This document shows, one piece after another, positions 13,776 through 35,760 of a stretch of DNA of 41,761 nucleotides (the stretch's first letter is position 1; each line of letters opens with the position of its first letter). Below the pieces are notes generated by a model. It made no database searches and had not been told where the DNA came from. It saw only the letters and a program-made list of their open reading frames with translations. The stretch is taken from positions 1 to 41,761 of the forward strand of contig JADFJW010000003.1 of the NCBI GenBank assembly GCA_022565235.1, given 5' to 3'. Position numbers and translations under genes: made by a program. Source of the stretch: Nanobdellota archaeon. GTDB lineage: Archaea > Nanobdellota > Nanobdellia > Woesearchaeales > GW2011-AR4.

Positions 13776-13807
13776 ATTAATCAAAAAATATTTAAGGGAA
13801 GTTTAAT

Positions 13808-14040
13808 GCGCTAAAATTCCACCAATTTCATGAAAATCGTAGATTTTCAGGATCCTCGGAAACAAAGTTTCCGGGAAACAGGAAATTCTTTCGGAATTTC
13901 CAAGTTCACCAAAAATCTTCGATTTTTGCGTGCTATGATTGACAGTAAGATAGTGGCGGAATTCGCTGAGTCAAGAACCACACTAACTGCCAATGCTAAT
14001 AATTTCATGCCATCCGTCTTTGACAGATGGTTCTTGACTA
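13808..14040 (+). ncRNA. Candidate structured non-coding RNA: closing stem, four consecutive small perfect hairpins, then a 12-bp stem
   Basis: Perfect hairpins at 13831-13849, 13857-13873, 13881-13901, 13910-13928; closing stem 13808-13824/13954-13966; stem AGTCAAGAACCA/TGGTTCTTGACT 13969-13980/14028-14039. Lies between a CDS end and a separate TATA-like box for panB. Confidence 0.5.
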
Positions 14041-14066
14041 TTATGGCCTAGTCCGTTCTAAGAAAA

Positions 14067-23188: not shown

Positions 23189-23393
23189 CCCCACCTAGCT
23201 CAACGGTAGAGTGTTCGGCTGTAGGTAAAATCCACTATTCGACTAAGCTTTATGCTAATGGATGAAGAATAGATAGCTGATCCCGAAAGGTTGCTGGTTC
23301 AAAACAGCTTTTTTGCTTCCGCAAAAAACCTGGGAAAAACAGGGATTTTGCTACGCAAAATCAAAAAAGCTGATGAAAGTCCGGCGGTGGGGA
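23189..23393 (+). tRNA. tRNA-Tyr(GUA) with two introns: 23225-23281 (anticodon loop 37/38) and 23304-23379 (T-loop 59/60)
   Basis: Removing both introns gives CCCCACCTAGCTCAACGGTAGAGTGTTCGGCTGTAGCCCGAAAGGTTGCTGGTTCAAATCCGGCGGTGGGGA, a full cloverleaf with archaeal Tyr C1:G72. TATA-like tttttaaata lies about 25 nt upstream. Confidence 0.92.
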
Positions 23394-23402
23394 TCAATTC
23401 TT

Positions 23403-30925: not shown

Positions 30926-31034
30926 TTTAAAGGTTTTGGAAAATTTAATTTTCCAAGTATCGAAAAATTAAAAAATATTTTTCGGACCTTTAAACTAGAA
31001 AATACCTTTAGAATTTTTCGCTGTTTAAAGGTAT
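30926..31034. repeat. Three-way-junction-like palindromic intergenic element plus downstream hairpin
   Basis: TTTAAAGGT/ACCTTTAAA (30926-30934/30986-30994) enclosing TTGGAAAATTtAATTTTCCAA and CGAAAAAT/ATTTTTCG; followed by ATACCTTTA/TAAAGGTAT (31002-31010/31026-31034). Confidence 0.55.
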
Positions 31035-35584: not shown

Positions 35585-35760
35585 GCGCTGGTGGTCTAAT
35601 GGTTATGACTCGAGCCTTCCAAGCTCGGTATCTGGGTTCGAAACGATCTTTTCCGTGAATTGCGAGCGAACTCGCTTCGCTCGTCGCGGGTAACCGTAAA
35701 AGCTCGACCAAAATCGGGCTTTTCCTACGGAAAAGAACGATGAAAGTCCCAGCCAGCGCA
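35585..35760 (+). tRNA. tRNA-Gly(UCC) with 104-nt intron 35643-35746 in the T-loop (59/60)
   Basis: Removing the intron gives GCGCTGGTGGTCTAATGGTTATGACTCGAGCCTTCCAAGCTCGGTATCTGGGTTCGAATCCCAGCCAGCGCA, a perfect cloverleaf. TATA-like aaatttataaa about 27 nt upstream. Confidence 0.93.

What the first reader, a model, noticed from the sequence alone, without database searches (positions are those of the whole stretch)
13808..14040. Candidate new structured ncRNA: chain of four tiny perfect hairpins inside a closing stem, then a 12-bp stem
Seen: TGAAAATC-gta-GATTTTCA; CGGAAAC-aaa-GTTTCCG; GGAAATTC-tttcg-GAATTTCC; CAAAAATC-ttc-GATTTTTG in tandem, enclosed by GCG(ctaa)AATTCC.CCA / TGG.GGAATTCGC, followed by AGTCAAGAACCA/TGGTTCTTGACT with a 47-nt loop. 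TATA-like AT-rich sequence lies upstream and panB has its own TATA-like box downstream, so it looks like an independent unit. I see no RNase P, SRP, 5S, C/D or tRNA signature.
Basis: partly seen in the sequence, partly recalled or inferred. Interest (0 to 1): 0.72.

Follow-up and report, generated by a model that had tools for sequence, protein, structure and literature searches.

The report
Nested mobile hairpin repeats, not ncRNA
The row of tiny hairpins upstream of panB is most likely a short transposon-like DNA repeat with a second small hairpin repeat lodged inside it; both recur across the genomes of related archaea, sometimes inside protein genes, so it is mobile DNA rather than a new RNA gene.

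Summary
The hairpins are real: all four perfect stems, the closing stem and the 12-bp stem are at the stated places, and 0 of 200 shuffles fold as well. The reading as an independent ncRNA gene is not supported. The unit is two nested repeats. (1) A base element (about 130 bp uninterrupted; window 13808-14038) follows a conserved TTTAAT, has near-terminal hairpins, no terminal inverted repeat and a sharp TTGAC right end. It recurs at unrelated loci in same-family genomes, and its right end matches that of an intact IS200-type transposase (TnpA) element in the same genus: it looks like a palindrome-associated transposable element (PATE). (2) A 105-nt four-hairpin unit (13828-13932) sits inside its left hairpin without target duplication. 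This unit and a 51-nt two-hairpin form recur across the family in both orientations, mostly between genes, sometimes in frame inside genes (Trm1, transketolase, pantoate kinase). Stems covary; linkers stay constant. A same-genus relative with the same gene order lacks the unit upstream of panB, as do 13 of 15 panB loci. Closest known: PATEs interrupted by SMR-A elements in Haloquadratum. How the inner unit moves is unknown.

The parts
13802..13807 (+). TTTAAT that precedes the base element in nearly all copies; probable target/left cleavage flank
   Evidence: Conserved to position -8 before GCTAAAATTCC, then conservation drops sharply
13808..14038 (+). Base element (PATE-like), interrupted by the inner unit; right end ...GGTTCTTGAC
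   Evidence: Copies of about 130 bp without the insert at unrelated loci in G009 and G011; composite about 81% identical in G011
13819..13827 (+). Left arm CCACCAATT of the base element's left-end hairpin
   Evidence: Uninterrupted copies read CCACCAATTCTATGATTGGTGG
13828..13932 (+). Inner unit: 105-nt four-hairpin small mobile repeat TCATG...GCGTG; hairpins 13831-13849, 13857-13873, 13881-13901, 13910-13928
   Evidence: Removing it restores the uninterrupted hairpin loop; 51-nt and 105- to 113-nt relatives in many genomes with covarying stems
13933..13945 (+). CTATGATTGACAG, rest of the left-end hairpin (right arm decayed from ATTGGTGG)
   Evidence: Comparison with uninterrupted copies
13969..13980 (+). 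AGTCAAGAACCA, 5' arm of the 12-bp stem, internal to the base element
14006..14038 (+). Right end: CATG, hairpin CCATCCGTC-TTT-GACAGATGG, tail TTCTTGAC
   Evidence: Eighteen distinct right ends covary; same layout ends the IS200-type TnpA element of G003
13830..14051 (+). 73-aa ORF across the repeats, most likely chance or repeat-derived
   Evidence: No Pfam family; its peptide resembles the repeat-derived stretch ETGNSKGISKLTGKS in another own-genome gene

Best explanation
Two nested, non-coding mobile DNA repeats. The outer one is a PATE-like, transposase-free relative of an IS200/IS605-type element. Its ends fold into hairpins on single-stranded DNA; a TnpA (Y1 tyrosine/HUH transposase) supplied in trans would recognise them, cut after a TTTAA-like flank on the left and after TTGAC on the right, and move the element without target duplication. 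The inner one is a small mobile hairpin unit (51 nt with two hairpins, 105-113 nt with four) that inserts without target duplication, with a preference for palindromic sites, here the left-end hairpin of the outer element. The composite was probably copied as one piece at least once, since G011 carries the same nesting point upstream of a trpA-like gene. Shown here: dispersal, boundaries, nesting, absence at the orthologous place in a relative, covariation, and a TnpA element with matching ends. Inferred: movement by TnpA and the single-stranded pathway. Not explained: how the inner unit moves.
For: Repeated in own and related genomes. Sharp boundaries TTTAAT| and TTGAC| without inverted termini or duplication. 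Right-end layout and left hairpin shared with an intact IS200-type TnpA element present twice in G003, same genus; that protein passes the NCBIfam IS200 cut-off. Exact nesting: excision of 13828-13932 restores the uninterrupted loop; further nestings in right-end hairpins in G010 and G011. Palindromic flanks enriched, 0 of 2000 shuffles as high; direct repeats not enriched. Same-genus relative G004 with the same gene order lacks the unit. In-frame copies in conserved genes. Covariation in both repeats. PATEs interrupted by SMR-A repeats are documented in Haloquadratum.
Against: No transposition seen. No TnpA (PF01797) found in the window's own genome, which is only 66% complete. No TnpA element with exactly the base element's left end was found. 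The inner unit has no fixed target and no identified mobiliser. Some copies share flanks, so copy counts are not all independent events.
Confidence: 0.82

Rival explanations
1. An independently transcribed structured ncRNA gene upstream of panB.
For: Very stable fold and real covariation among copies; a repeat can be transcribed.
Against: Absent upstream of panB in 13 of 15 relatives' loci including a same-genus one; many copies at unrelated loci, orientation mixed; the opposite strand folds at least as well; no Rfam match.
Confidence: 0.06
2. A cis-acting leader or regulator of panB (riboswitch-like) embedded in repeats.
For: It lies between the upstream gene and panB, and G016 also has repeats upstream of panB.
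Against: The panB TATA-like box lies downstream of the unit, so the panB transcript should not contain it; other relatives have no counterpart; the same composite sits upstream of a trpA-like gene in G011.
Confidence: 0.04
3. Locally generated palindromes (template switching and slippage) without transposition.
For: Stem arms stay perfect while their sequences drift, and units nest in hairpin loops.
Against: Constant linkers and ends (TCATG, CAGGA, AAGTTCACC, GCGTG) at unrelated loci in different genera need copying of a unit, not local slippage alone. Template switching may still keep the stems perfect.
Confidence: 0.08

Closest known systems
PATEs (palindrome-associated transposable elements) of Haloquadratum walsbyi, PMC3119063
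   Same: No inverted termini, near-terminal palindromes, no target duplication, too short for a transposase, ends related to IS605-type transposons, terminal-only forms of about 50 bp.
   Different: Different lineage and different sequences as far as seen; no strain pair to show recent movement.
SMR-A small mobile repeats of Haloquadratum walsbyi, PMC3119063
   Same: About 110 bp, no target duplication, inserted into the near-terminal palindromes of PATEs, mobiliser unknown.
   Different: SMR-A copies have prominent inverted termini and are near-identical; the inner unit has unlike ends (TCATG/GCGTG) and free, covarying stems, and a 51-nt form.
IS200/IS605 transposons with TnpA (PMC6006769)
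   Same: Subterminal hairpins at both ends, flank-defined left junction, no duplication; intact TnpA element with like ends in G003.
   Different: The window element carries no gene.
Rickettsia palindromic elements (PMC10969869)
   Same: Palindromic repeats inserted in frame in unrelated protein genes.
   Different: Here most copies are intergenic, units are shorter (17-35 codons), the host is an archaeon; sequence relation not tested.
REP/BIME repeats with TnpA-REP (PMC6006769, PMC3733652)
   Same: Arrays of short imperfect hairpins, thought to spread by Y1 transposases.
   Different: No GTAG/CGTC-type tag at the hairpin foot; fixed order of hairpins with distinct linkers; the G003 TnpA scores as IS200, below the REP cut-off.

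Membership tests
PATE / IS200-IS605-derived element (outer repeat) | No terminal inverted repeat, no target duplication | tested here: met
   Aligned flanks and ends of about 18 left and 35 right ends
PATE / IS200-IS605-derived element (outer repeat) | Near-terminal palindromes at both ends | tested here: met
   Left and right hairpins; right hairpin covaries
PATE / IS200-IS605-derived element (outer repeat) | Fixed short sequence next to the left end | tested here: met
   TTTAAT in nearly all copies, sharp drop beyond
PATE / IS200-IS605-derived element (outer repeat) | Ends related to those of a transposon that encodes TnpA | tested here: met
   G003 element: right end CATG-hairpin-TTCTTGAC, left hairpin GCCACCG then ATAA; left flank differs (TTATAC)
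PATE / IS200-IS605-derived element (outer repeat) | Mobilised by TnpA through single-stranded DNA, guide sequences pairing with the cleavage sites | not testable with these tools
   Needs biochemistry
SMR-A (inner unit) | Inserts into near-terminal palindromes of PATEs, no duplication | tested here: met
   Window, G010, G011
SMR-A (inner unit) | Prominent terminal inverted repeats | tested here: not met
   Ends TCATG and GCGTG are not inverted copies of each other; only the inner stems AAAATC/GATTTT resemble each other
SMR-A (inner unit) | Copies nearly identical | tested here: not met
   Stems differ widely between copies
Rickettsia palindromic element (inner unit) | In-frame insertion in protein genes | tested here: met
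   Trm1, transketolase, pantoate kinase, 4 of 22 copies in ORFs
Rickettsia palindromic element (inner unit) | Sequence homology to RPE families | not tested
   No RPE sequences were compared
REP/BIME (inner unit) | GTAG- or CGTC-type tag at the hairpin foot | tested here: not met
   Feet read TC(A)TG, CACC
Stand-alone structured ncRNA gene | Conserved at orthologous places | tested here: not met
   13 of 15 panB loci lack it
Stand-alone structured ncRNA gene | Match to a known RNA family | tested here: not met
   Rfam
Stand-alone structured ncRNA gene | Discrete transcript | not testable with these tools
   No RNA data

The most novel reading that the evidence does not exclude
The inner unit is a distinct class of mobile element: a fixed chain of two to four imperfect hairpins in which only linkers and ends are conserved while every stem may change if its partner changes too. 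It inserts cleanly into palindromes, including other mobile elements, and adds readable in-frame peptides to conserved enzymes.
Probability: 0.25. Interest if true: 0.65.

Novelty: new variant of a known kind. Interest (0 to 1): 0.45.

Why it matters
It shows that PATE-plus-small-repeat nesting, described in a haloarchaeon, also occurs in a small-genome archaeal lineage, with a matching TnpA element at hand to test. It adds an archaeal case of palindromic repeats read in frame inside core enzymes (a tRNA-modifying enzyme, transketolase, pantoate kinase). It also warns that stable, covarying intergenic hairpin chains in such genomes can be mobile repeats rather than ncRNA genes, which would mislead covariation-based ncRNA discovery.

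Tried and rejected
ncRNA gene: rejected on absence at the orthologous place, mixed orientation and dispersal. Rfam at gathering and at E up to 1: nothing credible. The 73-aa ORF: no family. TnpB as source: the right-end motif is on the contig of one G011 TnpB, but over 1 kb away and in the wrong orientation, so not its end. Most TnpA loci have other, canonical IS200 ends. Literature searches found nothing on such repeats in DPANN archaea, in a library that lacks most subscription journals.

Full report
OBSERVATION. The 233-nt region folds far better than shuffles on either strand, as RNA or as DNA. The genome is archaeal: S12 and S7 in the window pass the archaeal/eukaryotic models, next to panB and coaBC. 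Pfam gives the gene upstream as 2'-5' RNA ligase-like. Genomes of the family are mostly about 1 Mb; that they are DPANN archaea is my inference, not tested.

REPEATED, NOT UNIQUE. The region matches other places in its own genome and in 15 of 31 genomes of the genus, family and order. The partial matches fall into blocks: left end, right end and middle recur separately. Fetching them shows two repeats.

OUTER REPEAT. In G009 and G011 a compact element of about 130 bp recurs at many unrelated loci: TTTAAT|ACGCTAAAATTCCACCAATTCTATGATTGGTGGATAAATAGTGGTGGAATTCGCTGAGTCAAGAACCACC...CATGCCACCCGTCTTTGACGGGTGGTTCTTGAC|. Conservation stops sharply just before TTTAAT and just after TTGAC; there are no inverted termini and no duplication. 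Very short one-hairpin forms exist (L070, L108). The right-end hairpin is kept through compensatory changes in 18 distinct ends. Two copies of an IS200-type TnpA element in G003 (same genus), 96% identical over 685 bp at different sites, have the same kind of right end, CATG-hairpin-TTCTTGAC (the second copy reads CGTG), and a left hairpin GCCACCG...CGGTGC followed by ATAA. The protein passes the NCBIfam IS200/IS605 cut-off. This is the anatomy of a PATE. Movement by such a TnpA is inferred, not shown; in the window's own, incomplete genome no TnpA was detected.

INNER REPEAT. Taking out window 13828-13932 (TCATG...GCGTG, 105 nt) leaves CCAATT|CTATGATTG, the uninterrupted left hairpin of the outer repeat. 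G011 carries the same composite, about 81% identical over the stretch matching 13783-14023, upstream of a trpA-like gene (named by eye from its sequence), so the composite itself seems to have been copied. A 51-nt two-hairpin form sits in right-end hairpins: CCACCGGTC|TTTGACCGGTGG in G010 and CTGATG|GGTGG in G011. A pattern for the first hairpin and linker finds 24 true copies in 9 genomes and none for the reversed control (one further match, in G025, is not a copy). Four-hairpin units with the same linkers but other stems occur in G003 and G011, and related arrays in G009, G016 and, in another family, G030. In seven full four-hairpin units all 293 pair cells are standard pairs and nine pairs changed on both sides; for eleven 51-nt units it is 99.6% and five pairs. 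Copies are related, so these controls show structure kept by selection or by copying between arms, without telling which. Flanks of 24 insertions are more palindromic than re-paired flanks (0 of 2000 shuffles as high) and show no excess of direct repeats; a few of the 24 share flanks.

WHERE COPIES LIE. Of 22 copies with context, 18 are intergenic and 4 are in ORFs. Orientation to the neighbours is mixed: 5 with both genes on the element's strand, 5 with both on the other, 4 convergent, 1 divergent, 3 with one side unknown, and inside genes two each way. In frame: own-genome Trm1 (17 codons, MKIEDFQDTGNRRFPRE, in a loop that is short or unrelated in most relatives and has a different hairpin-derived stretch in G001), a transketolase N-terminus in G002 and pantoate kinase in G011. 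Another own-genome gene carries a related array.

AT THE LOCUS. In G004, the same-genus relative with 89% identical PanB over the matched part and the same ligase-panB order, the interval is about 70 bp and lacks the unit. Of 15 panB loci only the window and G016 have repeats there, and the G016 cluster is a different arrangement. The panB TATA-like box has counterparts in relatives and lies downstream of the unit, so the insertion apparently left the promoter intact.

VERDICT. The structure is real and covarying, but it is best explained as mobile DNA: a PATE-like element with a small mobile hairpin repeat in its left palindrome. In Haloquadratum the same kind of nesting (SMR-A inside PATEs) is documented. 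The inner unit fails two SMR-A features (inverted termini, near-identity) and adds in-frame coding insertions like Rickettsia palindromic elements, so it is filed as a new variant of a known kind. How it moves is open. Organism names could not be obtained because the collection scans failed.

Noticed in passing
window 35585-35760 (+): A tRNA-Gly(TCC) gene with an intron-like, hairpin-rich insertion of about 100 nt in the T-loop (GGGTTCGAA|ACGATC...GATGAAAG|TCCCAGCC). ARAGORN finds no tRNA with it and calls tRNA-Gly once it is removed.
   Followed up: partly
window 23191-23394 (+): A tRNA-Tyr-like (GTA) gene that seems to carry both an anticodon-loop intron and a T-loop insertion with hairpins ending in the same GATGAAAG|TCC as the Gly gene; neither ARAGORN nor Rfam reports any tRNA in the window.
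   Followed up: partly
window 30930-30995: Another small cluster of two perfect hairpins (TTGGAAAAT/ATTTTCCAA and CGAAAAAT/ATTTTTCG) between AAAGGT and ACCTTT.
   Followed up: no
L158 (G011:C34): A TnpB in G011 ends in a repeat-like peptide (FRDTGNQRFPRV), so a palindromic unit seems fused to the 3' end of a transposon gene.
   Followed up: no
L063 (G009:C1): A copy of the base element holds a third kind of insert, a longer GC-richer palindrome (GTGAATTGTGAGCGAG.../...CTCACTCGCATCTCAC), at another place.
   Followed up: no
L009 (own genome C4:21760-22010): A longer nested palindrome cluster with several hairpins and closing stems (CGGACAA/TTGTCCG, GCAAATGAC/GTCATTTGC), related to the inner unit.
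   Followed up: no
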